This document shows positions 3,811 to 41,998 of a stretch of DNA of 64,000 bases, piece by piece. The position numbers and the translations under genes are program-made. Source of the DNA: Prochlorococcus marinus str. MIT 9302 (GTDB taxonomy: Bacteria; Cyanobacteriota; Cyanobacteriia; PCC-6307; Cyanobiaceae); assembly GCF_000759975.1 (NCBI RefSeq), contig NZ_JNAM01000011.1, positions 1 to 64,000 on the forward strand, read 5' to 3'. The notes beneath the pieces are model-generated. The model did not search any database, was not told the origin of the DNA, and saw only the letters and a list, made by a program, of their open reading frames with translations. The stretch's first letter is position 1. Every line of letters starts with the position of its first letter.

Positions 3811-6147
3811 TTATACCCTAATTTCTTGATAAAGATATTTCTGGAAATCAATGAAAGTTTTTTGAATATTTTGAGCAGTTCCTAGCTTTTCCTGAGCGGC
3901 GCTTATACTTCCATATTTTGCCCTTATTACTGTACTTAAATTACTGACATCGATTTCATCTTCACCAATATCAATATAATTTCGTAAAACATATTCAATG
4001 AAGTCTTTTTCATTCTGATTCAAAAAATTCACTATCTTAGATTTATTAGTTTCTACCCTTAATCTTCTAGGGACTGGTTTTTTGGAATAAGCAATGTATT
4101 CGAGAACATCAAAAATATCACTATTTTTTGCATTAATTAGTTCTTGTAGTTTCTTTAAATCATCAATATGACAACCTTCCTTTTCAAGCTTTTCCAACAA
4201 CTCTTTTCTAGTGAGTGGATTTGCCCATAAAGTACGTAATTCAAATTCACTTTTGAATAGGTCTGGAAGTTTTAATTTTTCAAATAAACGTTTAAGAAAT
4301 TCTTCTGGACTAACAGGTTTTCCATCTAGATAAAAGTAGGTGCTTTTCATGCTTTGAATTTCTCTAAATTTACCATCACTCAACTTTATGCGAATTTTTT
4401 TTGGAGTCTCTCCATCATCGCCTCCCTCATTATTTCCGCCGTTATTACTTCCATTTTCTCCAATGTTATTTCCTCCTTCAATAATTGGCTTGATAGGACT
4501 TTCTGGTTCTATTGGATCACCATCCCATTCTGGATCATTAAACAACTTATATGCATTAACAAAGTCGATGATTGTGAAATAATATTTTCCTTCAAATAAC
4601 CTTGTTCCTCTTCCAATTATTTGTTTAAACTCAATCATATTATTTACTGGACGAAGCAAAACTACATTCCTTACATTTCTTGCATTTACTCCAGTACTGA
4701 GTTTTCTACTAGTTGTGAGAATAGTAGGAATTAATTTTTCATTATCTTGAAATTGTTTTAAATATGTTTCTCCAATAGCTGAATCTTTAGCCGTAACACG
4801 AACACAGTACTCAACTGGCTTATTTTTAGATTCCTGATTTATAAGATTTCTAATCAATCCAGCATGCAGTTGAGTCGCACAGAAAACTAGTGTTTTTTCG
4901 TCGTGATTTATCACAGAAAGTAATTCTTGTACTCGCTTTCTTTCTCGTTCTTCAATTACGATTGAACGATTAAAATCTTGCTCTTCATATATGCGATCCT
5001 CCTCTACTTCTCCTTCAAGAATTTCATCATCATTTGTATATTGATATTCATCGATAGTGGTTTGTATTCTTTTAACTTTGAAGGGAGTTAAAAATCCATC
5101 TTTAATACCTTCTTTAAGACTATAAACAAATACAGGATCACCAAAATATTTATAAGTATCTGCATTATTATTTCTCTTTGGAGTAGCAGTAAGACCTAAA
5201 TGAACTGCACTCGAAAAATGATTTAAAATATCTCTCCAACTACTTTCATCATTAGCACCGCCACGATGACACTCATCAATAATTACTAAATCAAAGAAAT
5301 CTTTTTCATATTGACCAAAATAAGGTTCATCTTTTTCTCCACTCATGAAGGTCTGAAAGATAGTGAAGAAAATACTTCCGTTTTTTGGGACCTCTTTATT
5401 CTTTGCAATATCTTTTGGATTTATCCGTACTAATGCATCTTCTTCAAAAGCCCCAAAATCTAAGAATGCTTGATTAGCAAGAATGTTTCTATCAGCCAGA
5501 AAAAGTATACGAGGTTGTCTCTTGGCATTCCTTTGTACAGTCCATCTACTTTTAAATAATTTCCATGCAATCTGAAAAGCAATAAATGTTTTTCCAGTTC
5601 CAGTAGCGAGGGTTAGTAAAACGCGATCTTTATTATTTGCAATCGAATGAACTACACGATTAACAGCAAGCTCTTGATAATAGCGAGCTTGCATTGCGCC
5701 GTTAAAATCTTCAAAAGGTATTGCATTGAATCGATCACTCCATTCATTAGTTTCTTTAAAGGTTCGTTTCCAAAGTTCTTCAGGTGAAGGGAAAGAATTA
5801 ATTATTCCTTCAGTCTTTGAATCATGATTTATTCCATAAATTTCTTTTCCATTAGTTGCGAAGCTATTCTTGAGTCTTAATTTTTGTGCATAAATCTTTG
5901 CTTGAGCGACTCCTTCTCCAACATCTAGCTCATCACTTTTTGCTTCTACCACAGCAAGTTTGATATTTTTGTATTCAAGTACATAATCAGCTTTTAATTT
6001 ACCTGTTCGAATACCACCTGCTCTTATTTCTCCATCATTAATTGGATATTCACGACGAACACGTATACCCAAAGAGATATCTGTTTCCCAACCGGCTTTT
6101 GATAACTGGGGATCAATAAGTTCAGCTCGAGTATCTGCTTCGTTCAT
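3811..6147 (-). CDS. hsdR: Type I restriction enzyme R subunit (endonuclease/translocase)
   Basis: A 778-residue motor and nuclease subunit of a type I restriction system. The N-terminal PD-(D/E)xK nuclease is visible as D54 with E68-A-K70. The SF2 translocase follows: Walker A ATGTGKT at 181-187, DECH box at 291-294, LTATPKR at 319-325, and motif VI QIIGRGTR at 509-516. A Gly/Asn-rich linker (about 553-578) precedes the C-terminal domain that contacts the methylase complex. It overlaps hsdS by 4 bp (ATGA), so translation is coupled. All catalytic motifs are intact, so the enzyme appears functional. Confidence 0.95.
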   Translation of the reverse strand: MNEADTRAELIDPQLSKAGWETDISLGIRVRREYPINDGEIRAGGIRTGKLKADYVLEYKNIKLAVVEAKSDELDVGEGVAQAKIYAQKLRLKNSFATNGKEIYGINHDSKTEGIINSFPSPEELWKRTFKETNEWSDRFNAIPFEDFNGAMQARYYQELAVNRVVHSIANNKDRVLLTLATGTGKTFIAFQIAWKLFKSRWTVQRNAKRQPRILFLADRNILANQAFLDFGAFEEDALVRINPKDIAKNKEVPKNGSIFFTIFQTFMSGEKDEPYFGQYEKDFFDLVIIDECHRGGANDESSWRDILNHFSSAVHLGLTATPKRNNNADTYKYFGDPVFVYSLKEGIKDGFLTPFKVKRIQTTIDEYQYTNDDEILEGEVEEDRIYEEQDFNRSIVIEERERKRVQELLSVINHDEKTLVFCATQLHAGLIRNLINQESKNKPVEYCVRVTAKDSAIGETYLKQFQDNEKLIPTILTTSRKLSTGVNARNVRNVVLLRPVNNMIEFKQIIGRGTRLFEGKYYFTIIDFVNAYKLFNDPEWDGDPIEPESPIKPIIEGGNNIGENGSNNGGNNEGGDDGETPKKIRIKLSDGKFREIQSMKSTYFYLDGKPVSPEEFLKRLFEKLKLPDLFKSEFELRTLWANPLTRKELLEKLEKEGCHIDDLKKLQELINAKNSDIFDVLEYIAYSKKPVPRRLRVETNKSKIVNFLNQNEKDFIEYVLRNYIDIGEDEIDVSNLSTVIRAKYGSISAAQEKLGTAQNIQKTFIDFQKYLYQEIRV

Positions 6148-7244
6148 AAGTTAATATTAAGTGTTTTCTTTAAGATTGAACTTTTAAGATTATCGAACAA
6201 TTCTGACTTCTTAATTAAATTAATATCTACCTTCTTTATTAGTTCCTTAGCATTTACTATGGTTTCAAGTATCTCTTTCAATTTGCTCTCTTCTGGAATC
6301 GGAATGGGTATTTGATTCAATTTTGCTTTGTTTAGCTTTGGTTGAGCCATCCCAGAAATAAAATCATCAATATTTTTAAAATTCAAATAGATCTCAACCC
6401 ATGATTGTATATCTTCTGAATTAAACTTCAAAACATGTGCGTGATTATTAACCCAAGATCTTCCACTAATTGAAAATGCAATAGGATAACTCCTTGATAT
6501 TAAGTTCGCACCGTCCTCAGAAATCAAAAGTAAATCATCGTCAAATATATACCCTTGAACATAATCAACAATCCCACTGGCTCCATAATATGGGGTTAAT
6601 CCATTTATTCTTTTTGATTTAGTTATTGGTTTTCTGTTTGAGTCTAGATTGGTAGAAATCTCATCAAGATATTTATTTTTCCAATTAAAGTTTTTGTTTC
6701 TAAGAAATTGAATAATAATTTGATTTAATAATTGAGAATAAATCAATACAGCCTTTCTTGATATGTTTTTTAATTTATGAATCTCATCAAAAGTAAAATC
6801 AAGCATCTCTATAATGCACACTTGTTCTGCTAATGGGGGCAATAAGAATGTAATACTTTCAATTTGCTTTTTACTTATAGAATTAAATATTGCGCCTGAA
6901 GTAACGTCAAGATTTTTAGAAATGCTAGATAAGACATAAAAGAGATAATTTTTATCAATATTACTTTTTACCCTAATAGCAGCTAAGCCACGCCCAATGC
7001 AAACTTCTTCAGTTGCTAAATTTATTGCACCAACTGGAGCTCTTACAGAAAAAAGTAAATCACCAGCTTTAGCAATCTTAGTAACTTCTCTTGTCCAAAT
7101 TGAAGGTGGTTTTAAAAACTTCTCTCCAAAATCCTTCTTGCCTTGGTAGAAAGGTAAACCTTCTTTTTCCTTATTGTAGTTTTCACTTTTAGGAGATTGA
7201 CCTGCAATAACATTAGCGACATCTGATAGTTTAACTAAACTCAT
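6144..7244 (-). CDS. hsdS: Type I restriction-modification specificity subunit S
   Basis: A 366-residue DNA-recognition subunit with two similar halves. Each half has a target recognition domain followed by a helical conserved region. The first runs from about residue 1 to 190 (KLSDVANVIAGQSPKSENY, with FSVRAPVG). The second runs from about 190 (YLDEISTNLDSNRKP, ISEDGANL, SISGRSWVNNHAHVL). The start overlaps the hsdM stop by one base (TAATG) and its end overlaps hsdR, giving an M-S-R operon on the minus strand. The recognised DNA sequence cannot be read from the protein. Confidence 0.93.
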   Translation of the reverse strand: MSLVKLSDVANVIAGQSPKSENYNKEKEGLPFYQGKKDFGEKFLKPPSIWTREVTKIAKAGDLLFSVRAPVGAINLATEEVCIGRGLAAIRVKSNIDKNYLFYVLSSISKNLDVTSGAIFNSISKKQIESITFLLPPLAEQVCIIEMLDFTFDEIHKLKNISRKAVLIYSQLLNQIIIQFLRNKNFNWKNKYLDEISTNLDSNRKPITKSKRINGLTPYYGASGIVDYVQGYIFDDDLLLISEDGANLISRSYPIAFSISGRSWVNNHAHVLKFNSEDIQSWVEIYLNFKNIDDFISGMAQPKLNKAKLNQIPIPIPEESKLKEILETIVNAKELIKKVDINLIKKSELFDNLKSSILKKTLNINL

Positions 7245-8701
7245 TACTGCAGTACACCTTTAATTCTCTCTAAACATTCAGCTGATTGTAAATCTAACTG
7301 TTCAATCTCATCAATAATTTCTCGAGGTGTTCGATTATCTATCTTTTCAATAGTGTTTGGATTCTTTGCTGTCAGGTCCCAAGTATCTTTATTGACTGAT
7401 CCAATATCTAATAACCAACTATTTTTGCTTGATTGTTTTGTCTTATAAGTTTCAAAAAAATCCTTTAAATCATTTTCATTCATCGGATTAGTTTTGCCCA
7501 TACTTCTCCCAACATCAAGTTGGTAATACCAAATTTGTTCTGTAGATTTACCTTTCTCAAAAAATAGGACAACTGTTTTTACTCCTGTCCCGATAAAAGA
7601 TCCTTGAGGTAAATCGAGAACAGCAAAAAGATTACAGTCTTCAAGTAGTTGCTTACGTAGTGCAATGCTTGCATTATCAACATTACTTAGAAAAGTATTT
7701 TTTATTACGACCCCACACCTTCCTCCAGACTTCATCATTTTTATAAAGTGCTGCAAAAATAAATAAGCTGTTTCAGAGGTTTTAATCGGAAAATTCTGCT
7801 GTATTTCTGAACGTTCCTTTCCCCCGAAAGGAGGATTAGCAAGTATTACATCTACCCTATCTTTTTGCTGAACATCTGCAAGATTCTCAGCAAGTGTATT
7901 TGTATGAATAATATTTGGAGCTTCAACTCCATGAAGAATCATATTCATAATTCCAATTACATAAGCAAGACTTTTCTTCTCTTTTCCATAGAAAGTGCTG
8001 TTTTGTAGTTGTTGAAATTCGGCTGCATTTAATTCTTTACTTTTACTCATCCAATCAAACGCTTCACATAGAAACCCTGCACTTCCAGCGGCACCGTCAT
8101 AAACAGTCTCACCAATTTGAGGATTGATAACTTTTACTATGCTTTTGATAAGAGGTCGAGGCGTGTAATACTCACCACCATTTCGCCCTGCATTCCCCAT
8201 GTTTTTGATCTTATCTTCATACAAACTGCTCAACTCAAGCTTTTCCTTATTGCTAAGGAATTTCAGATCATTTACTTTATTGATTACATCTCTAAGGGAA
8301 TAACCGCTTTGTAATTTATTTCTTAACTCAGAAAATATTTCGCCAATTTTGTAATCGATACTATTTGGATTCTCTGCGCTTTGTTTAAATCCAGCAAGAT
8401 GTGGGAAAAGCTCTTTATTAACAAACTCAAGTAAGTCATCCCCAGTTAATGCAATATCGTAATTAAGTTTCCCATCATAAGTCTTTGGATAAGCCCACTC
8501 ATTCCATCTAAATTCTTTGTCAATAATTCTTTCGTAAGTTTCTCCATTTAAAATTGCTGCTGTTTCTTTCTCCTCTTCATAATCATCTAGATATTTGAGA
8601 AATAGAATCCAACTAGTTTGCTCTATATAATCAAGTTCACTGCTGCAACCAGCATCTTTCCAAAAAACGTCATCTATATTTTTGAAGGCTTCTTCATACA
8701 T
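7244..8701 (-). CDS. hsdM: Type I restriction-modification DNA methyltransferase subunit M
   Basis: A 485-residue adenine-N6 methyltransferase of a type I system. It has an N-terminal helical HsdM_N domain (1 to about 165) and a GEYYTPR segment at 176-182. The SAM-binding motif I, DGAAGSAGF, is at 202-210 and catalytic motif IV, NPPF, at 289-292. It is first in the operon, so it methylates host DNA together with HsdS while HsdR cuts unmodified DNA. The upstream end lies about 190 bp from tRNA-Pro fragment 3, with a class A 11-bp repeat pair between. Confidence 0.95.
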   Translation of the reverse strand: MYEEAFKNIDDVFWKDAGCSSELDYIEQTSWILFLKYLDDYEEEKETAAILNGETYERIIDKEFRWNEWAYPKTYDGKLNYDIALTGDDLLEFVNKELFPHLAGFKQSAENPNSIDYKIGEIFSELRNKLQSGYSLRDVINKVNDLKFLSNKEKLELSSLYEDKIKNMGNAGRNGGEYYTPRPLIKSIVKVINPQIGETVYDGAAGSAGFLCEAFDWMSKSKELNAAEFQQLQNSTFYGKEKKSLAYVIGIMNMILHGVEAPNIIHTNTLAENLADVQQKDRVDVILANPPFGGKERSEIQQNFPIKTSETAYLFLQHFIKMMKSGGRCGVVIKNTFLSNVDNASIALRKQLLEDCNLFAVLDLPQGSFIGTGVKTVVLFFEKGKSTEQIWYYQLDVGRSMGKTNPMNENDLKDFFETYKTKQSSKNSWLLDIGSVNKDTWDLTAKNPNTIEKIDNRTPREIIDEIEQLDLQSAECLERIKGVLQ

Positions 8702-33227: not shown

Positions 33228-33391
33228 GGGTTCCCCGTTAAGAAAATACTCAAAAAACCAACTATTTAACTTAATATGTAATGATATTGTTACATATATG
33301 TAGCATATATCTTGAAAATAACTTAATTTCGGCCTATTACTTTACATTCGTTAATACTAGTGTTACATTAGTTAACAATTACACAACTTCA

Positions 33392-33598
33392 ATGGCTAAT
33401 TCAAACGTTACGACTGAATCAGGAGGCAGACAAAACATGTTTCCTACTGAGACACGTCCTTACATAGATGAGTCTGTTTCATACGGCAGTTACCCTCAAA
33501 ATGCAGAAAAAGTTAATGGTCGTTGGGCAATGATCGGGCTTGTTGCATTAGTAGGTGCTTATGTTTCAACAGGACAAATTATTCCTGGCATTTTTTAA
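33392..33598 (+). CDS. hli: High-light-inducible protein
   Basis: 68 residues. I chose the ATG giving MANSNVTTES, because upstream codons are not protein-like. The chlorophyll-binding helix is NAEKVNGRWAMIGLVALVGA, ending TGQIIPGIF. The stop overlaps the next hli start (TAATG), so it leads a four-gene operon. AT-rich sequence with several TTACAT words precedes it. Confidence 0.92.
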   Translation: MANSNVTTESGGRQNMFPTETRPYIDESVSYGSYPQNAEKVNGRWAMIGLVALVGAYVSTGQIIPGIF

Positions 33599-33858
33599 TG
33601 ACTCCTCTTTATGGTTTTTTAGCTGTAATGGTATTATTTACAGCCATCCTCATTGCTTATCTAACTAAGCAATTTCAAAATGAAAATTCAAACTATTTAT
33701 CTACAAATCCAATGAAAAAAACAAACACAAAATCTAAAATAATCGAAAAAGAAAAAATTGTTGCTGAAACTCTCAACGGCAGATTCGCAATGCTTGGACT
33801 AATAGCTGCTATTGGAGCATATCTAACAACAGGTCAAATAATTCCTGGTTTCGTTTAA
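33598..33858 (+). CDS. hli: High-light-inducible protein with extra N-terminal helix
   Basis: 86 residues: an N-terminal membrane helix (MTPLYGFLAVMVLFTAILIA), a Lys-rich linker, then the Hlip helix ETLNGRFAMLGLIAAIGAYL ending TGQIIPGFV. Two-helix Hli proteins are less common than single-helix ones. The start overlaps the preceding stop by one base, giving coupled translation. Confidence 0.9.
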   Translation: MTPLYGFLAVMVLFTAILIAYLTKQFQNENSNYLSTNPMKKTNTKSKIIEKEKIVAETLNGRFAMLGLIAAIGAYLTTGQIIPGFV

Positions 33859-33887
33859 AACTTTACTAAAAAATCATTTAAATAAAA

Positions 33888-34016
33888 ATGGAAAATTCAA
33901 AATCAACTTATTGGCAAAATGCCGAGAGAACTAATGGGAGAATGGCAATGATGGGCTTATTTGCATTAGTTGTAAATTATGGCTTATTCGGCTGGATAAT
34001 ACCAGGAATCTTTTAA
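33888..34016 (+). CDS. hli: High-light-inducible protein, short form (42 aa)
   Basis: MENSKSTYWQNAERTNGRMA then MMGLFALVVNYGLFGWIIPGIF. It is almost only the Hlip helix, with Glu-Arg and Asn ligands. It is the third hli in the operon and the shortest. The next start is 1 bp after its stop. Confidence 0.88.
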   Translation: MENSKSTYWQNAERTNGRMAMMGLFALVVNYGLFGWIIPGIF

Positions 34017-35413: not shown

Positions 35414-35575
35414 ATGAGTCGCATTTTTAAAATGACTCAAAATTCCATGAATACTCCTTATGCAAAAAGAGTATCTGAAAAATTTAGAGAGGCTCAAAAC
35501 TATTTAAAAACTAATGGTTTTAGTAGATCAACTAAACATTTATTAGAGGATATTGAAAATTCTGTTGAAAAATAA
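35414..35575 (+). CDS. Small helical protein, 53 aa
   Basis: MSRIFKMTQNSMNTPYAKRV with a helix KFREAQNYLKTNGFSRSTKH, ending ENSVEK. It may be a ribbon-helix-helix-like or unstructured protein; unrecognised. An internal Met at residue 7 could also be used. Confidence 0.5.
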   Translation: MSRIFKMTQNSMNTPYAKRVSEKFREAQNYLKTNGFSRSTKHLLEDIENSVEK

Positions 35576-35688
35576 TAGCCTAACTCGTTTTAAATAGAAG
35601 ATATAATAATGAATAAATATTTCCCGAAATTATTTTAGGCTTCAAAAAACAAATTTTTAATATTCGAATAAAAACATTAATCTCAATA

Positions 35689-36462
35689 ATGTTTTTATTT
35701 TTGGTTAGTAGTTGCTCTTTTTTTTATGAAAATAAAGATCATACAAAAAAACAAAATAATAACCTCAACAAAGAAATTATAAATAATTTCTCTAAGGCAA
35801 TATCAAAAAATGCAGATAATTTTTTATTTTATTTAGAGAGAGGGAAAGCAAAACATGCTTATGGAGATTATATTGGGGCAATTAAAGATTTTAATGATTC
35901 ATTAAGACTCAATCCAAATTCAAAAGCCATTTTTAATAGAGCGAATTCCAAATATGCTTATGGAGATTACAATGGAGCAATTAAAGATTACGAGAAATTT
36001 ATATCAAGAAATATTTTTCAGGATCAAGTTTTTTATAGCATCGCCAATTCTCAATTCATTCTCCTTGAATATGAAAAGGCAATTGAAAATTACAGCAAAT
36101 CTATTAAGTACGATCAGGATGAAGAAAATGCCTATTTAAATAGAGGAAATGCAAAATTCAAAATCGGTGATTATATAGGTTCTATAAAAGACTATGAAAA
36201 GTCTCTAGAAATCAATGCAAAATCATATGTTGCACTGAATAATATGGGAGTTAGTAAATTTAAATTAAAAAAGTACAGAAACGCCCTACAAGATTTCAAA
36301 AAATCTCTGAAACTAAATCCCAATAATTACAATACTTTTTATAATAAATCCCTAACTCATTTTGAATTAAAAGAATTTAAAAAAGCTTGTATTGATTTAA
36401 AAAAATCAAACAAGCTTGGTAAAGAAATATTCAAGTCAGAATATTCAAAAATATGTTTTTAA
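35689..36462 (+). CDS. TPR-repeat lipoprotein
   Basis: 257 residues. A short signal with lipobox LVSSC (lipidated Cys near residue 9) is followed by about six tetratricopeptide repeats. Clear units are LERGKAKHAYGDYIGAIKDF, NRANSKYAYGDYNGAIKDYE, LNRGNAKFKIGDYIGSIKDY and NMGVSKFKLKKYRNALQDFK. TPRs mediate protein-protein contacts. It is probably anchored to an envelope or thylakoid membrane. Partner unknown. Confidence 0.85.
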   Translation: MFLFLVSSCSFFYENKDHTKKQNNNLNKEIINNFSKAISKNADNFLFYLERGKAKHAYGDYIGAIKDFNDSLRLNPNSKAIFNRANSKYAYGDYNGAIKDYEKFISRNIFQDQVFYSIANSQFILLEYEKAIENYSKSIKYDQDEENAYLNRGNAKFKIGDYIGSIKDYEKSLEINAKSYVALNNMGVSKFKLKKYRNALQDFKKSLKLNPNNYNTFYNKSLTHFELKEFKKACIDLKKSNKLGKEIFKSEYSKICF

Positions 36463-36499
36463 AAAAAATTTTTTAAAGTAAGTAATAATAAATTTCTTT

Positions 36500-36814
36500 C
36501 TATTTTGCAATAGTTGCCTCAAGTTCAGCTATTTCAGCCTCCAGCTTAGAAGTATCTTCACCTGCCGCAGCAGCTTTAGATAATGCTCTTTTCTTGAAAC
36601 TTAGTTTTGCCTTAGCTTGCTTCGCCTTTTTAGCGGCCTTTGCTGCAGGAGTTGAGCCGCCGCCGCCGCCACAGGCAATAAGATTATCGTTATTTATTTG
36701 ATTATCAAACTTCTCTGTAAGATGATTTGCAAGTAGTTCATTACCAACAAAGAAACTCAATGGGAATGCAATTAATGCTCCTAGGGAAAGTTTTAAAGAT
36801 TTGTTTAACTTCAT
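36500..36814 (-). CDS. Secreted Ala/Lys-rich protein with Cys-Gly5 motif
   Basis: 104 residues: signal-like N-terminus (LGALIAFPLSFFVGNELLA-N), then IACGGGGGSTPAAKAAKKAK, and a low-complexity helical region of Ala, Lys and Glu ending KLEAEIAELEATIAK. GCC/GCT-rich codons make it locally GC-rich against its surroundings. It could be a surface or DNA- or polyanion-binding protein (inference). No family recognised. Confidence 0.65.
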   Translation of the reverse strand: MKLNKSLKLSLGALIAFPLSFFVGNELLANHLTEKFDNQINNDNLIACGGGGGSTPAAKAAKKAKQAKAKLSFKKRALSKAAAAGEDTSKLEAEIAELEATIAK

Positions 36815-36910
36815 TTAATAATTAAATTTTTTAGATTCTATGCTTTCATATTCAGAAACAGGAAGGGCGAACATAATATTTAATATTTCACAATTTTTGA
36901 TGTATAAAAT

Positions 36911-38188
36911 TTATCTATTAACCAACTCAAATATATCTTCAGCGAGTTTTGAACTTAGTTTACTAGCTGCAAATTCAATAAAATGACTGTAGTCCAAAAA
37001 CCAACTAGTCGATTCAGCCTCTAGCGAATAATCAAGATAAATTATTTTTTTATTTTTTTCTATTTCTTTAGAAAAGGTTTCCCTGTAATCCTTCTCAATC
37101 AAGTACATCTCCCTTTCTAAAATTTTAGGTGCAAAAACAGGATTTCCAACTAGATGTTTTATACCAATCAAATATTTATAATTTTGCCCATTTAATTGCT
37201 CCTTTGATAAAGAACTAAAGTAATTAGGCGCATATACATAAATATATTTGTTATCCAAATAAAGATTTGCAGTAGAACTTATATTCCTTAATGTAGATTG
37301 TATTGAATAATTTTTTATCTTCTCATATTCTGCAAAATCTAAATTCAGTCTCTGTTCTAGTATCTCTTTAAGATTCTTATTCTTTTTATTTTCTTCTAAA
37401 TTTATAGTTAACTGTTTCTTTTCATAAGTTCCTGGACTCACTTTATTTATAGATCTCAAATCATCTACATAAGAAAGAAAATAGCTTCTTTTTTTTATCG
37501 AATTTAAAAATGTAATAACCCCACTACTTATATTTCCTAATGAGCTACTAGTTAAAAAATTTACGTACTCAATATTATTTGTATTAATCATCATGCCATT
37601 AGCAAAACTATATTCATTTCTCTTTTCATCATTTTCAGATAAAAGCCTCATAAAATTCCAGAAATCTTGGATACCTCCAAAACTTACTATTAGTTCTAGA
37701 GGTGGCAAGTAATCGTTAAATGGTTCGGAATTTAAATATCTAAAAGTCTCAACATGTTCTTGCCATGTATTAAAACCAGAATATGCAGCATTTACAAGAT
37801 CAATTTTAGGATTAATATTTCTTAAGTTTTTTTCTAACTGACTAGCAAAAGTTTTCTTATTATCAAATCCATAAAGACCTTCTCCCATAGCCACACTATT
37901 ACCAAGAAGCAAAATTCCATATGTATCTATTTTTTTATTTTCATGCTCAAAAGGTGTCTTTATAAAACCATTGCGATCACAAATTAAAAATTTGTAATTT
38001 TCGGGATTAATATGCTTATTTTCGCAATTTTCTCTCCAACCAGTCAGGGAATCAAATTTTGTTCCATTAGTAATTTTTGAATTTGATTTATTTATAAATA
38101 AGAAGGATAATTCTAAAATAAAAATTATTATTGGAATAAATATACTTGTATAAAGGATAAATTTTATAATTCCACTTTTACTCCTCAT
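36911..38188 (-). CDS. Membrane-anchored SGNH/GDSL-like protein
   Basis: 425 residues: one N-terminal membrane helix (8-30), then an SGNH-type fold. Block I reads LLLGNSVAMGEGL (Gly-Asn-Ser rather than Gly-Asp-Ser). Block III is near SFGGIQDFWN, and block V is DYSHFIEFAASKL with the Asp-x-x-His dyad. Such proteins often add or remove acyl groups on surface glycans. It is the last gene of a minus-strand group with a carbamoyltransferase. The Asn in block I keeps the nucleophile Ser, so activity is plausible. Confidence 0.75.
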   Translation of the reverse strand: MRSKSGIIKFILYTSIFIPIIIFILELSFLFINKSNSKITNGTKFDSLTGWRENCENKHINPENYKFLICDRNGFIKTPFEHENKKIDTYGILLLGNSVAMGEGLYGFDNKKTFASQLEKNLRNINPKIDLVNAAYSGFNTWQEHVETFRYLNSEPFNDYLPPLELIVSFGGIQDFWNFMRLLSENDEKRNEYSFANGMMINTNNIEYVNFLTSSSLGNISSGVITFLNSIKKRSYFLSYVDDLRSINKVSPGTYEKKQLTINLEENKKNKNLKEILEQRLNLDFAEYEKIKNYSIQSTLRNISSTANLYLDNKYIYVYAPNYFSSLSKEQLNGQNYKYLIGIKHLVGNPVFAPKILEREMYLIEKDYRETFSKEIEKNKKIIYLDYSLEAESTSWFLDYSHFIEFAASKLSSKLAEDIFELVNR

Positions 38189-38275
38189 TGAAAAATGTAT
38201 ATTACTTACAAATATATTTTAAAAATAAATATTAAATCTAACAATTCAAAATCTTTAAGGTCTTATTAATAAGAA

Positions 38276-38440
38276 CTAAATCGCTATGTAAGTAAATGGA
38301 ACAATAACTTGTACTACGCTTATTATTAAAATTATAATGATTACCAACAAAATTGCGGTTATCAAAGCAGCCTGAATAGGTGTTGCATTCTTCCAAGCAG
38401 ATAAAGTGATGTGTTTTAAAAATCGAAGAAAACTAAACAT
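38276..38440 (-). CDS. Small membrane protein of carbamoyltransferase cluster (DUF5989-like)
   Basis: 54 residues: an amphipathic start (MFSFLRFLKHITLSAWKNAT), one long membrane helix, and the C-terminal VPFTYIAI. A short membrane protein ending in a similar motif typically sits beside carbamoyltransferase genes (DUF5989), which is why I suggest that family. It starts 8 bp after the carbamoyltransferase stop. Confidence 0.6.
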   Translation of the reverse strand: MFSFLRFLKHITLSAWKNATPIQAALITAILLVIIIILIISVVQVIVPFTYIAI

Positions 38441-38448
38441 TTTAAATT

Positions 38449-40185
38449 TTAAGTTTTTCTTTTTAGCAATCCTAAATCAGTTAAAAGATAACGTAATTTT
38501 GTTCTCGAACAAACCATAAGTCCATCAACCAAGTCAAAAGAATTAGGATCTCCACTAACATTTAATGAAGAGTTAGCTAATATTTCGACTCCCATAGGTT
38601 CCAGAATAGATAATAACTTGTCTAAGGAAGAATTATTTTCAACAATTTGAATACGTGCTGTTCCATCAACATGGGTTGTTGGGAATTTTAAAGAAACATT
38701 ATCTTTAAGACATTGGCATGTTGCACTCATAGATTGATAGCAATCATAAATTTCAGGCCTTAATCTATAATATTTTTTCGCAATTTTATATCTCATAGCT
38801 GGTGCAGTTGGCCTAAAGGGACTTCTATTCTTTATTACCGTATTTAATTTTTTTACTGCATCTTTATTTTTTCCATCACATAGTAGAGATCTGTTACCTA
38901 GTGCTCTTGGACCTGTTTCACTACGCGATAATACTGTTCCAATTACTTCTCCTGCACTTATAAGTTCAGCAGCCTTCAAAAAAGCATCATCTTCATCTTT
39001 CTCTAAAATAGAAAATTGATTAAAAATAATTTGCTCTGTGAGAAATTCATCATTTCTTATTTCTTTTAAAGAAGGGAATAAAGAGGGCTTAGAAATTTTT
39101 AAATCAATGTACGAATTAGATTTTATGTAGCTATAAAAAGCTGCTCCAATAGCACAACCAGCGTCTCCAGGGCTTGGTGGAATAATTATTTCATCTATAA
39201 AAGGTAATTGAGCAAGACTATCAATTGATGCTGAGTTCATAGAAACTCCCCCCGAGAAAAGAAATCTTCTAGATCTAGTTATTTTATGGGCATGCGTAAA
39301 AATTTTTTGAAGTAGATAAATTGTTAAATCTTGGGCTCCCCTTGCTATGTCGGCGCATCTTTGAAAATCACTTTCTCCCGGTATAAGTTGTACAAAAGGA
39401 TTACGAGCAGGACCTAATAAATCCTCCAATTTACTATTAAATGAGTTAGATGTTGATAGATGATAATCAAAATAGCTCATATCAGAAATTATTTTATTAG
39501 AGGTGGAATCCCAATCCATTAGCCCCCTAACTAACTTTGCTGACTTACTTTTGGAATCTCCAAAAGAAGCTAATCCCATAACTTTATATTCACCTTCATT
39601 AATTGAAAATCCTAAGTAATCAGTAATACTTGAATAGAAAAGGCCCAAAGATACAGGATATGGACATTCCCATAACTCATTAATCTCTGATGGATTAACT
39701 ATTTGACTAATTGAAGCTGTACTTCTGTCTCCAAATCCATCAACAACTACAGAGCAAACATCTTTCTTAGAATTTGAATACGAAAGAGCTGTAAGTGAAT
39801 GTGACAAATGATGATCAGAATAGATTAATTTTGTTTCTAGTCCTTTAAATTCTTTTGCAAAATCTAGGTAACAAGAAACAGATGAGCGATTAAAATTACG
39901 AAACTGATGTACAAGAAGAGATAAACTTCTTGGCATATTTAGAGAGGCTTCTTTAACAATGTGAAGAAAAGCGCTTAATGGTCTTTCATAAAATGCAACT
40001 CTCTCTATATCCTTTATTTGGAGGTTGTTAGATTTTAGTAATTTACTTATTGCTCTCCGTGGGAATGATTTATCACCTTTGATTCTGCTTAAAGACTCTT
40101 CTCTGTAATAATCAATGAGGACTCCATTTTTATCGACTAATGCAGCAGCAGATTCATGATTATATCCGGAAACACCAATAAACAT
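38449..40185 (-). CDS. NodU/CmcH-type carbamoyltransferase
   Basis: About 578 residues from the Met giving MFIGVSGYNHESAAALVDKN, the family start. Upstream codons would overlap the neighbouring gene and are not family-like. The N-terminal Kae1-like domain carries the metal-site SDHHLSHSLTA and VVVDGFGDRSTAS. The C-terminal domain has SETGPRALGNRSLL. It transfers carbamoyl from carbamoyl phosphate to a hydroxyl, here probably a surface glycan or lipid. It lies between a ferritin-like gene and a small membrane protein. Confidence 0.92.
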   Translation of the reverse strand: MFIGVSGYNHESAAALVDKNGVLIDYYREESLSRIKGDKSFPRRAISKLLKSNNLQIKDIERVAFYERPLSAFLHIVKEASLNMPRSLSLLVHQFRNFNRSSVSCYLDFAKEFKGLETKLIYSDHHLSHSLTALSYSNSKKDVCSVVVDGFGDRSTASISQIVNPSEINELWECPYPVSLGLFYSSITDYLGFSINEGEYKVMGLASFGDSKSKSAKLVRGLMDWDSTSNKIISDMSYFDYHLSTSNSFNSKLEDLLGPARNPFVQLIPGESDFQRCADIARGAQDLTIYLLQKIFTHAHKITRSRRFLFSGGVSMNSASIDSLAQLPFIDEIIIPPSPGDAGCAIGAAFYSYIKSNSYIDLKISKPSLFPSLKEIRNDEFLTEQIIFNQFSILEKDEDDAFLKAAELISAGEVIGTVLSRSETGPRALGNRSLLCDGKNKDAVKKLNTVIKNRSPFRPTAPAMRYKIAKKYYRLRPEIYDCYQSMSATCQCLKDNVSLKFPTTHVDGTARIQIVENNSSLDKLLSILEPMGVEILANSSLNVSGDPNSFDLVDGLMVCSRTKLRYLLTDLGLLKRKT

Positions 40186-40204
40186 CTTAAAATTGCTAGA
40201 TACT

Positions 40205-40900
40205 TTAAAGGATAGATTTAGATGAAATTTCCATAAGATTTTTCCCTTCTCTTTTAAATTCATTTAAATTTAATTTTCTCGCCATATTTCCAGCGACAAA
40301 AGCCATTCCTTTATATAAAGGAGTTAGAATTTTGTCTAAAAACTTTAAATTTGCATCATATAATTTTCGTCCTTTGTTTTGAAGAGTCTCTCTAAAGCGA
40401 TACATAACCAGTTGCCAAGGTTGTAAAGCAGGGTAGTTTTTCAAGAAATATTTTTTAGCCATCCCATGATGTCGCAATTCATCCATCATAATGCTAGAAA
40501 TTATCTTACCTTCATCAGTATCTGAACCAACTAAATTTAATATATTTTCAAAAGATGATTTAGCTAAAAGTTCGTTTGTATAAACAAAAGCTATGAAGTC
40601 TTTTAATTTCATAGTATCAATTAGAAAACCCTTATTAGAGATGTAGCCTTTGATAATTAATGAAGGAGGGGTAAATCTAAATTCTCTAGCCTTTTCTAAA
40701 GATACCTTAATTCCTCTTTGAGAAAGCATTTTAAAAAAACATTTCGCATGCATATATTCATCTTTGGCGTGCATAAAATAACCTAATGCTTGCTTTGGGG
40801 TATCAGTTCCTTTACACGCTGCAAGCATTTCTAGGGCGGAAGCAAGCTCAGCATGTGCCGTTTCATAGAAAATAGGTAGTTCTGATTGAATATTTTTCAT
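40205..40900 (-). CDS. Ferritin-like di-iron protein
   Basis: 231 residues forming a four-helix bundle. A complete set of di-iron ligands can be read: E18, E48-x-x-H51, E110, E141-x-x-H144 (motifs HAELASA, DEYMHAK, NELLAK, MDELRHH). It is probably an oxygenase or hydroxylase rather than storage ferritin, given its pairing with a carbamoyltransferase 20 bp downstream (inference). It could hydroxylate the site that is then carbamoylated. It follows ychF on the same strand with a 6-bp gap. Confidence 0.85.
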   Translation of the reverse strand: MKNIQSELPIFYETAHAELASALEMLAACKGTDTPKQALGYFMHAKDEYMHAKCFFKMLSQRGIKVSLEKAREFRFTPPSLIIKGYISNKGFLIDTMKLKDFIAFVYTNELLAKSSFENILNLVGSDTDEGKIISSIMMDELRHHGMAKKYFLKNYPALQPWQLVMYRFRETLQNKGRKLYDANLKFLDKILTPLYKGMAFVAGNMARKLNLNEFKREGKNLMEISSKSIL

Positions 40901-40906
40901 CTTTTT

Positions 40907-41998
40907 CTAAACGTTGAATAAAAACTCCATTACATCTCCTTCATTAACAACATATTCCTTACCTTCACTTCTTAGTAAACCTTTAGTTTTTGCATTTGCA
41001 ATTGAACCTGAATCTATTAAGTTTTGATATGAAATGGTTTGAGCTCTAATAAATCCTTTTTCAAAATCAGTATGAATTACTCCTGCTGCCTGTGGCGCAG
41101 TCATCCCATCTTTTATGGTCCATGCTTTTGTCTCCTTTTCTCCGGTTGTGAAATAAGTTTTTAAACCCAATAATTTATATGTTGATCTAATTAAAGAACT
41201 TAATCCCCCTTCTTCTACGCCTAAACCAATAAGGTAGTCTTTTTTATCTTCTGGTTCTAACTCTATTAATTCAGATTCGACTTGCGCCGATATTTTTATA
41301 CATTCTGTATTTTCATTGCTTGCAAAACTCTGAACTTTTGATGAGAAATCATTACCTTCAGCTAAATCATTTTCATTCAAATTTGTTGCGTAAATAATTG
41401 GTTTAGCAGTAAGGAAGCCTAGTTGCTTAATTGTTAAATTTTCTTCTTCACTCAAAGATATTGATCTAACTGAAAGTCCTTTCTGTAGCTCTTCTTCAAT
41501 TTTTTCTAGTAAATTATCTTCTTTTGCTGCCTCTTTACTAGTTCTAACCTGTTTTTTAATTCTTTCTCTTCTTTTTTGGAGTTGGGATAAATCAGCTAAA
41601 TTCAATTCCAGATTAATTATCTCAATGTCATCCAAGGGATCTACCTTACCTGAAACATGAATTACATCACTATCTTCAAAGCACCTCACAACATGAACTA
41701 TTGCATCAACCTCCCTAATATTTGATAAAAATTTATTTCCCAAACCCTCACCTTTGCTGGCTCCTTTTACTAGTCCTGCGATATCTACAAATTCAATTTT
41801 TGTTGGGATAATATTTTGGCTAGAACTTAAATCACCTAACTCTTGTAACCTTTGATCTGGGACGGAAACTATACCTTTATTAGGTTCTATAGTACAAAAG
41901 GGAAAATTAGCCGCTTGAGCTTTAGCATTTTCGACAAGTGCATTAAATAAAGTTGATTTTCCAACATTTGGTAATCCAATAATACCGGCTTTTAACAT
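40907..41998 (-). CDS. ychF: Ribosome-associated GTPase/ATPase YchF (Obg family)
   Basis: 363 residues with an N-terminal P-loop GLPNVGKSTLFNAL, VDIAGLVKGASKGEGLGN as the switch/G3 segment, a coiled-coil insert, and a C-terminal TGS domain (WTIKDGMTAPQAAGVIHTD). The altered G4 motif ATNLNE explains the ATP preference of the family. It binds ribosomes and modulates translation under stress. This is a core gene and marks the right edge of the island. Confidence 0.96.
   Translation of the reverse strand: MLKAGIIGLPNVGKSTLFNALVENAKAQAANFPFCTIEPNKGIVSVPDQRLQELGDLSSSQNIIPTKIEFVDIAGLVKGASKGEGLGNKFLSNIREVDAIVHVVRCFEDSDVIHVSGKVDPLDDIEIINLELNLADLSQLQKRRERIKKQVRTSKEAAKEDNLLEKIEEELQKGLSVRSISLSEEENLTIKQLGFLTAKPIIYATNLNENDLAEGNDFSSKVQSFASNENTECIKISAQVESELIELEPEDKKDYLIGLGVEEGGLSSLIRSTYKLLGLKTYFTTGEKETKAWTIKDGMTAPQAAGVIHTDFEKGFIRAQTISYQNLIDSGSIANAKTKGLLRSEGKEYVVNEGDVMEFLFNV

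What the first reader, a model, noticed from the sequence alone, without database searches (positions are those of the whole stretch)
36911..40900. Ferritin-like, carbamoyltransferase, small membrane protein, SGNH: candidate surface-modification operon
A di-iron protein with full ligands sits directly before a carbamoyltransferase, followed by a DUF5989-like peptide and an SGNH protein with GNS in place of GDS. Hydroxylation followed by carbamoylation and acyl editing of a surface glycan or lipid is a coherent, untested pathway, and it lies at the island edge where phage-receptor variation is expected.
Basis: partly seen in the sequence, partly recalled or inferred. Interest (0 to 1): 0.55.

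Follow-up and report, generated by a model that had tools for sequence, protein, structure and literature searches.

The report
Di-iron protein with a carbamoyl-transfer cassette
Some Prochlorococcus strains carry a compact, movable set of genes in which an iron-binding protein travels with a carbamoyl-adding enzyme, apparently taking the place of a membrane partner of unknown role found in similar gene sets, which gives a testable way into what those partners do.

Summary
The four genes are real and form one unit. In 26 of 26 ferritin-like loci from a genome scan, the carbamoyltransferase follows and then the small membrane peptide. In 115 genomes of the genus, intact ferritin-like genes and this carbamoyltransferase subfamily occur in the same 12. 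All six di-iron ligands are invariant in 27 sequences. An SGNH gene is adjacent in 29 of 30 entries, two of them on weak evidence.

The unit is not an island edge but a 5.3-kb insert (35578-40903) after ychF that also holds a Gly-rich small-protein gene and a TPR gene. In 26 of 28 loci without it the flanks lie 164-167 bp apart.

The closest known arrangement is the carbamoyltransferase-SxtJ-SxtK/DUF5989-SGNH cassette, but SxtJ is missing. Of 53 cyanobacterial carbamoyltransferase loci, 11 have the ferritin-like gene, 38 SxtJ, none both. A Sphingobium plasmid has ferritin-like, carbamoyltransferase and DUF5989 genes in a row; its ferritin-like protein ends in an SxtJ-like helix. I infer a di-iron oxidase working with a membrane carbamoyltransferase. 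The acceptor is unknown; a surface glycan is only plausible.

The parts
35578..40903 (.). Inserted module between ychF and the 53-aa ORF
   Evidence: Flanks of module-less loci match the window up to 35576/35577 and from 40904/40907 onward; 26 of 28 module-less loci have the two flanks 164-167 bp apart; G081 keeps only the first parts of FER and TPR.
40205..40900 (-). FER: ferritin-like di-iron protein, 231 aa, with an extra C-terminal helix (161-209 in the model)
   Evidence: (six ligands invariant in 27); Pfam Rubrerythrin E 0.0021, below its cut-off; dN/dS 0.16-0.22 against four relatives.
38449..40185 (-). CT: NodU/CmcH-type carbamoyltransferase, 578 aa
   Evidence: PF02543 and PF16861; solved relatives include decarbamoylnovobiocin carbamoyltransferase, GdmN and TobZ; start chosen from relatives.
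38276..38440 (-). K: 54-aa membrane peptide, SxtK/DUF5989-like, ends VPFTYIAI
   Evidence: Next to CT in 30 of 30 entries; weak profile match to DUF5989; no Pfam DUF5989 hit.
36911..38188 (-). SG: SGNH-fold protein with an N-terminal helix, GNS motif, S98/D399/H402
   Evidence: best fold match CgnD, Z 18.1, 252 residues, 3.9 A.
36500..36814 (-). GGG: 104-aa small protein, N-terminal hydrophobic stretch, conserved Cys followed by a Gly run, Lys/Ala-rich tail
   Evidence: Beside SG in 22 of 30 entries; the only match in the own genome.
35689..36462 (+). TPR: tetratricopeptide protein with a lipobox-like start (VSSC, read by eye)
   Evidence: Pfam TPR_1 E 8e-31; in 23 of 30 entries; inside the inserted stretch.
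40907..41998 (-). ychF, flanking gene, not part of the module
   Evidence: Matched in 60 of 61 genomes, weak paralogue matches counted.
35414..35575 (+). 53-aa conserved ORF, other flank, not part of the module
   Evidence: Its stretch lies 164-167 bp from ychF in 26 of 28 module-less loci.

Best explanation
A horizontally moving cassette whose core is a di-iron ferritin-like protein (FER), a carbamoyltransferase (CT) and a DUF5989-like membrane peptide (K), with an SGNH protein (SG) nearly always beside it in Prochlorococcus. It is a variant of the CT-SxtJ-SxtK-SGNH cassette in which FER has taken over from SxtJ. Proposed working: FER sits on the inner face of the membrane through its C-terminal helix and oxidises, most likely hydroxylates, a membrane-presented acceptor. 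CT then puts a carbamoyl group from carbamoyl phosphate on the new or a neighbouring hydroxyl, held at the membrane by FER and K. SG, anchored by one helix, acts on the product by hydrolysis or transfer. Shown here: the unit, its co-inheritance, the conserved ligands and triad, the absence of SxtJ, and the folds (as moderate-confidence models). Inferred: horizontal movement (from the changing neighbourhoods), oxygenase chemistry, order of steps, membrane docking, side of the membrane, acceptor.
For: FER-CT-K in 26 of 26 loci of the genome scan and 30 of 30 entries, 29 of them distinct, in 7 neighbourhood clusters. FER and this CT in the same 12 of 115 genomes. SxtJ and FER never together in 53 CT loci. 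SxtJ absent from G000, G033 and G241 and found in the other 4 of the 7 genomes of the same search. The same FER-CT-DUF5989 order on a Sphingobium plasmid; its FER aligns over the ferritin-like domain with all six ligands in register and carries an SxtJ-like helix (20.2 bits; best of 400 tail-shuffled controls 2.6). FER-linked CTs, Sphingobium included, lie on one side of a tree branch (100/98; all 200 bootstrap trees). Purifying selection on FER.
Against: No activity or substrate evidence. Pfam matches of FER are below cut-off, and ferritin-like folds also store iron or remove peroxide (recalled). The SxtJ-like tail is seen only in Sphingobium; Prochlorococcus FER tails do not match SxtJ. FER lies upstream of CT, whereas SxtJ lies downstream in 14 of the 23 J-type loci and upstream in 9. 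Outside Prochlorococcaceae I have one FER-CT example. The branch to the Prochlorococcus CT clade is long (4.23), so its join with Sphingobium could be a long-branch artefact. Four of the 53 CT loci have neither FER nor SxtJ within 1.5 kb, so a partner is not always nearby.
Confidence: 0.45

Rival explanations
1. FER is a membrane adaptor or a redox/iron switch that holds or controls CT in place of SxtJ, without oxidising the acceptor.
For: Mutual exclusion with SxtJ, a small hydrophobic protein in which I recognise no metal site; SxtJ-like helix at the end of the Sphingobium FER.
Against: All six metal ligands are invariant in 27 sequences and in register in Sphingobium, more than a pure adaptor needs.
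Confidence: 0.25
2. The cassette tailors a peptide: the small GGG protein (or another peptide) is the substrate, oxidised by FER, carbamoylated by CT and cut by SG, much as the crocagin pathway does with a different iron oxygenase.
For: The best solved fold match of SG is CgnD, the crocagin peptidase: Z 18.1, 252 residues, 3.9 A, against 15.1 for the next. The crocagin cluster also has an iron-dependent dioxygenase and a carbamoyltransferase (passages). GGG is the only such gene found in the genome and is next to SG in 22 of 30 entries.
Against: GGG is missing from 8 of 30 entries, one of them cut by a contig end. No sequence match of SG to CgnD, and CgnD is not among the 50 Foldseek rows listed. 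GGG has an export-type N-terminus (by eye), so it may leave the cytosol where CT should act.
Confidence: 0.12
3. The acceptor is a surface glycan or lipopolysaccharide and the cassette varies phage receptors.
For: Glycosyltransferase, GDP-mannose/fucose and polysaccharide-export-type genes near the unit in L045, L047 and L053, three of the four loci whose flanks I scanned. Patchy presence: 12 intact of 115 genomes. Cyanophages carry other carbamoyltransferases.
Against: In 17 of 30 entries FER sits directly behind ychF, and the window insert holds no glycan gene. No PADLOC hit.
Confidence: 0.15
4. Chance neighbours in a variable region.
For: The ychF site is variable, and most FER hits are close relatives.
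Against: 7 neighbourhood clusters, a Sphingobium copy, the same 12 genomes both ways.
Confidence: 0.01

Closest known systems
SxtI-SxtJ-SxtK-SxtL genes of cyanobacterial sxt clusters (PMC2679770, PMC2885083; passages read), and like cassettes elsewhere in Prochlorococcus
   Same: A carbamoyltransferase, a 54-codon small protein and a GDSL/SGNH protein of about 1280 bp, side by side (for the sxt lengths).
   Different: No SxtJ; a ferritin-like protein precedes CT; CT is shorter (578 aa against 612) and the FER-linked CTs form a separate group from the J-type CTs I put in a tree (no sxt sequence in it); K gets no Pfam DUF5989 hit. No other sxt gene was looked for and nothing here points to toxin making.
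Sphingobium sp. TomTYG65 plasmid pTomTYG65a operon (L119)
   Same: Ferritin-like, CT, DUF5989 in that order; no SxtJ among the annotated genes.
   Different: Its FER has a clear SxtJ-like transmembrane tail; a cupredoxin-like gene lies upstream and a methyltransferase downstream; no gene annotated as SGNH in the stretch, where most genes are 'hypothetical'.
Crocagin pathway (CgnC, CgnD, CgnI; PMC10070186, abstract and passages read)
   Same: Iron oxygenase, a Ser-Asp-His hydrolase and a carbamoyltransferase; SG folds most like CgnD.
   Different: CgnC uses 2-oxoglutarate and is not a ferritin-like protein; no CgnB/CgnE peptide binder was looked for; no proven precursor peptide here.
COQ7 / rubrerythrin / AurF group of ferritin-like di-iron proteins
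   Same: Ligand pattern and four-helix fold; weak hits to Rubrerythrin in 13, COQ7 in 5 and AurF in 1 of 27 members.
   Different: The window protein is below the curated cut-offs; no room for a separate rubredoxin domain is seen in the 231 aa.

Membership tests
NodU/CmcH-type carbamoyltransferase | Both domains PF02543 and PF16861 over their cut-offs | tested here: met
   107.6 and 113.1 bits against cut-offs 24 and 27.
NodU/CmcH-type carbamoyltransferase | Carbamoyl transfer to a hydroxyl | not testable with these tools
   Sequence similarity to solved carbamoyltransferases only.
CT-SxtJ-SxtK-SGNH cassette | SxtJ (PF19588) beside CT | tested here: not met
   No SxtJ-profile hit with the 11 FER-linked CTs; no PF19588 in G000, while 4 of the 7 genomes of the same search had it.
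CT-SxtJ-SxtK-SGNH cassette | SxtK / DUF5989 (PF19451) | tested here: inconclusive
   No Pfam hit; profile comparison P 1.5e-4, probability 51%; the Sphingobium counterpart is DUF5989, E 3.5e-9.
CT-SxtJ-SxtK-SGNH cassette | Adjacent SGNH/GDSL gene | tested here: met
   28 of 30 entries by an iterated profile (L046 among them is remote: 27% over 160 aa, Pfam E 0.053). L045 by Pfam Lipase_GDSL E 7.8e-4, below cut-off; L047 only by eye.
Ferritin-like di-iron carboxylate proteins | Four Glu and two His in two ExxH motifs on a four-helix bundle | tested here: met
   Invariant in 27 of 27; fold Z up to 13.7, model pLDDT 69. The tool warns that Z near 13 can be unspecific for helical bundles.
Ferritin-like di-iron carboxylate proteins | Bound di-iron and oxygen chemistry | not testable with these tools
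   Needs purified protein.
Rubrerythrin | PF02915 over its cut-off | tested here: not met
   18.9 bits against 22.8.
SGNH hydrolase | Ser-Asp-His triad on the SGNH fold | tested here: met
   S98, D399, H402 invariant in 17 rows; fold matches Z 12.8-18.1 in the 50 rows shown.
SGNH hydrolase | Canonical GDS block I and GxND block III | tested here: not met
   GNS and GIQD in the window protein and nearly all relatives (L043 has GSS, L046 GDS). Canonical motifs are recalled.
Crocagin-like peptide pathway | Precursor peptide processed by the enzymes | tested here: inconclusive
   GGG accompanies SG in 22 of 30 entries; no processing evidence.
Anti-phage defence system | Match to a known defence family | tested here: inconclusive
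   No PADLOC hit for six proteins; absence from the library is not proof.

The most novel reading that the evidence does not exclude
A di-iron oxygenase has replaced SxtJ as the membrane partner of a carbamoyltransferase (in one lineage it ends in SxtJ's last helix), giving an oxidise-then-carbamoylate machine. In the ychF-linked form its substrate is the exported Cys-Gly-rich GGG protein: a di-iron and carbamoyl peptide-modification system released by a CgnD-like SGNH protein.
Probability: 0.08. Interest if true: 0.88.

Novelty: new variant of a known kind. Interest (0 to 1): 0.6.

Why it matters
SxtJ and SxtK stand beside carbamoyltransferases in many cyanobacteria and in rhizobial plasmids. 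A 2010 review calls the sxt copies functionally uncharacterised (PMC2885083, passages), and a 2009 paper proposes, without a test in the passages I saw, that they act together with SxtI (PMC2679770). A natural exchange of SxtJ for a di-iron protein, with one case ending in an SxtJ-like helix, gives a direct handle: either SxtJ is the membrane dock of the carbamoyltransferase, or it brings in an oxidation partner. It would also point to a carbamoylated product, unknown so far as I can tell, in a very abundant ocean phototroph (abundance recalled). My searches of the open-licence paper library did not show a description of the pairing: no paper, one paper for (PMC4390845, listing only, not opened), four for (passages of one read, PMC3037559).

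Tried and rejected
Island edge: rejected, the window copy is a discrete insert. Two of the 28 module-less loci (L082, L089) have other sequence after ychF.

Defence system: no PADLOC hit, not pursued. PHROGs gave the phage 'Nol-like carbamoyltransferase' family for CT (E 2.8e-67) and a weak tail-fibre hit for the Gly-rich GGG protein (E 0.0022), which I take as composition.

Phage-borne origin: no close FER relative in viral contigs, phages or plasmids. Phage carbamoyltransferases are distant, 25-30% identity in the 25 rows shown of 137 records.

K as plain DUF5989: no Pfam DUF5989 hit.

SxtJ homology of Prochlorococcus FER tails: looked for and not found (at most 1.4 bits; hhalign E 0.59).

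Sequence link of SG or of three other CT-linked SGNH proteins to CgnD: none. The CgnD match is of fold only and is not among the 50 Foldseek rows.

Wider FER search: the Sphingobium protein has no other plasmid relative. In 386 cyanobacterial genomes 3 had FER. Genomes of other phyla could not be reached by the genome search; the one genome-contig scan used two narrow patterns, so distant FER genes may exist unseen. Ten further carbamoyltransferase loci on plasmids gave no FER-profile hit; three of them had SxtJ and DUF5989. A crude ExxH motif scan there flagged frames in L154, L157, L160 and L162 that I took as chance and did not check.

Tree labels: L143 was labelled 'none' in the tree because the first SxtJ profile missed it, but the wider profile finds SxtJ there. 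This does not touch the FER group.

PDB sequence search with the FER profile gave a ribosomal protein and an HD-domain protein first and ferritins only at E 0.06-0.11.

SxtJ and DUF5989 searches in the own genome alone found nothing and had no positive control; SxtJ was repeated with positive genomes, DUF5989 was not.


Full report
WHAT IS THERE. The window lies in a Prochlorococcus-type genome (G000, 1.75 Mb, contig C11; all 26 relatives of the scan are labelled Prochlorococcus). On the minus strand, directly after ychF, run FER (40205-40900), CT (38449-40185), K (38276-38440) and SG (36911-38188). FER, CT and K are separated by 19 and 8 bp. CT should start at 40185, where the three relatives start. 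Purifying selection is seen throughout (dN/dS against four relatives: FER 0.16-0.22, CT 0.13-0.17, K 0.08-0.12, SG 0.20-0.29).

FER. Weak Pfam hits to Rubrerythrin and COQ7, below cut-off for the window protein. In 27 sequences E18, E48, H51, E110, E141 and H144 are invariant, the pattern of a di-iron carboxylate protein (recalled). The predicted model (pLDDT 69, pTM 0.56) matches bacterioferritins, ferritins and Dps proteins over residues 1-159 (Z up to 13.7, 137 residues, 3.4 A). For helical bundles the tool warns that Z near 13 can arise from a common arrangement, so the fold rests on the ligand pattern as much as on Z. Residues 161-209 form an extra helix in the model.

CT. Both carbamoyltransferase domains are present, with solved relatives such as decarbamoylnovobiocin carbamoyltransferase, GdmN and TobZ. 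It is the only match of the own genome in the carbamoyltransferase searches.

K. A 54-aa hydrophobic peptide ending in VPFTYIAI. It has no Pfam DUF5989 hit, but a profile comparison with DUF5989 peptides gives P 1.5e-4 and probability 51%, and it shares their P-F-x-Y ending.

SG. One N-terminal helix, then an SGNH fold (model pLDDT 70). Ser98, Asp399 and His402 are invariant in 17 rows; block I is GNS and block III GIQD in nearly all relatives, so GNS is a family trait and not a loss. The fold match that stands out is CgnD of crocagin biosynthesis, Z 18.1 with 252 residues at 3.9 A, against 15.1 for the next. CgnD is a Ser-Asp-His hydrolase that frees the crocagin core from its leader peptide, in a pathway that also has an iron-dependent dioxygenase and a carbamoyltransferase (PMC10070186, abstract and passages; the paper does not use the word SGNH in its text). 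This is a fold likeness only: no sequence match was found, and CgnD is not among the 50 Foldseek rows listed.

CO-OCCURRENCE. A scan of 84,980 species genomes with the FER alignment gave 26 loci, all Prochlorococcus. In 26 of 26, CT follows FER and K follows CT. Over 30 entries (29 distinct, since L026 and L034 are the same contig) FER-CT-K holds in 30 of 30. SG is found by an iterated profile in 28 of 30, downstream, upstream or divergent; L046 among them is remote. Of the other two, L045 has a GDSL-like gene next door (Pfam below cut-off), and L047 an SGNH-looking one by eye only. The 29 loci fall in 7 neighbourhood clusters. In 115 genomes of the genus at least 85% complete, FER was found in 13, one of them (G081) a remnant. 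In the same 115, this CT subfamily (833 bits or more; the next CT scores 263) is in 12, the same 12 that have intact FER. Fisher p is 1.6e-16, without correction for kinship. In 386 genomes of the phylum FER is in 3, and the three CTs over 800 bits are in the same three.

THE INSERT. Of 30 ychF loci examined (the best-scoring of 61 genomes), two carry the module and 28 do not. In 26 of the 28, the stretch with the 53-aa ORF (window 35414-35575) lies 164-167 bp from the end of ychF. In the window this gap is 5.3 kb and holds TPR, GGG, SG, K, CT and FER. In G081 only the first parts of FER and TPR remain and the rest is gone. So TPR and GGG came and went with the four genes. GGG is beside SG in 22 of 30 entries and TPR is in 23; both also accompany SG where the unit sits elsewhere or in another orientation (L048, L051, L052, L057). 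GGG has no second match in the own genome.

RELATION TO THE SXT-TYPE CASSETTE. In published sxt clusters sxtI (carbamoyltransferase) is followed by sxtJ (405 bp), sxtK (165 bp) and sxtL (1278-1281 bp, GDSL type); SxtJ and SxtK are proposed to act with SxtI, and SxtL to remove the carbamoyl group (PMC2679770, passages). Other carbamoyltransferase loci of Prochlorococcus show that set: Pfam SxtJ over cut-off in the two proteins tested (L058, L060) and Pfam DUF5989 in the two tested (L058, L059). Over 53 cyanobacterial CT loci with 1.5 kb on each side, scored with profiles made here, 11 have FER and K, 33 have SxtJ and a DUF5989-type peptide, 5 have SxtJ alone, 4 have none of these, and none has FER and SxtJ together. 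The 53 are those that the searches returned as loci, not every CT found. SxtJ (PF19588) was absent from G000, G033 and G241 and present in the four other genomes of the same search.

SPHINGOBIUM. The best-ranked plasmid relative of CT is on Sphingobium plasmid pTomTYG65a (31% identity). The gene order is a cupredoxin-like gene, P0005, CT, a DUF5989 gene and a methyltransferase. P0005 is ferritin-like: it aligns with the FER profile over residues 12-188 with all six ligands in register (hhalign P 7.9e-5, probability 61%; 17.5 bits against at most 9.6 in 1000 shuffles). Its tail is strongly hydrophobic, and residues 188-222 match the last helix of SxtJ (20.2 bits; best of 400 tail-shuffled controls 2.6). 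Prochlorococcus FER tails show no such match. Of ten other plasmid carbamoyltransferase loci read, none gives a FER-profile hit and three have SxtJ and DUF5989. In a tree of 46 CTs, all 13 FER-linked ones, Sphingobium included, lie on one side of a branch (100/98; all 200 bootstrap trees). The tree is unrooted, the Prochlorococcus branch is long (4.23), and the program warns of long branches and uneven amino-acid make-up, so one common origin is favoured rather than proven.

HOW IT PROBABLY WORKS. Ferritin-like proteins with this ligand set often activate oxygen (COQ7, AurF and others; recalled). With CT next door and an SxtJ-like membrane helix in one relative, the simplest reading is an oxidise-then-carbamoylate complex at the membrane, with SG acting on the product, perhaps taking the carbamoyl or another group off or moving it. 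The acceptor is open. Of the four loci whose flanks I scanned, three have glycan-type genes: L045 (glycosyltransferase), L047 (GDP-mannose/fucose genes) and L053 (polysaccharide-export type). That makes a glycan or lipid-linked acceptor plausible. For the ychF-linked form there is no such gene in the window insert, and the conserved GGG protein makes a peptide acceptor conceivable.

VERDICT. The finding is a new variant of a known cassette type, with an unexpected exchange of SxtJ for a di-iron protein.

Noticed in passing
window 36500-36814 and relatives in L048, L051, L052, L057: Small exported-type proteins with a conserved Cys followed by five or more Gly and a Lys/Ala-rich tail; in the 22 entries that have one it lies on the strand of SG and just downstream of it. 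Function unknown.
   Followed up: partly
L108 (G081), about 7904-8258: Deletion scar of the module: first parts of FER and of the TPR gene remain, the rest is gone.
   Followed up: yes
L046 14099-16487: A second carbamoyltransferase with SxtJ and a DUF5989-type peptide lies about 4 kb from the FER-type cassette on the same contig.
   Followed up: partly
L043 6507-7634: A fatty-acid-hydroxylase-family gene lies beside the FER cassette, on the opposite strand.
   Followed up: no
L119 5845-6252: A cupredoxin-like gene with a signal-peptide-like start overlaps the start of the Sphingobium FER gene; a possible electron partner.
   Followed up: no
L120 (Marine virus AG-345-D19) 5871-7211: A short viral contig from a single-cell sample carries a distant carbamoyltransferase near SGNH-like and sulfotransferase-like frames (read by eye).
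   Followed up: no
window 33281-34016: Small proteins that look like high-light-inducible proteins (by eye) cluster just beyond the insert.
   Followed up: no
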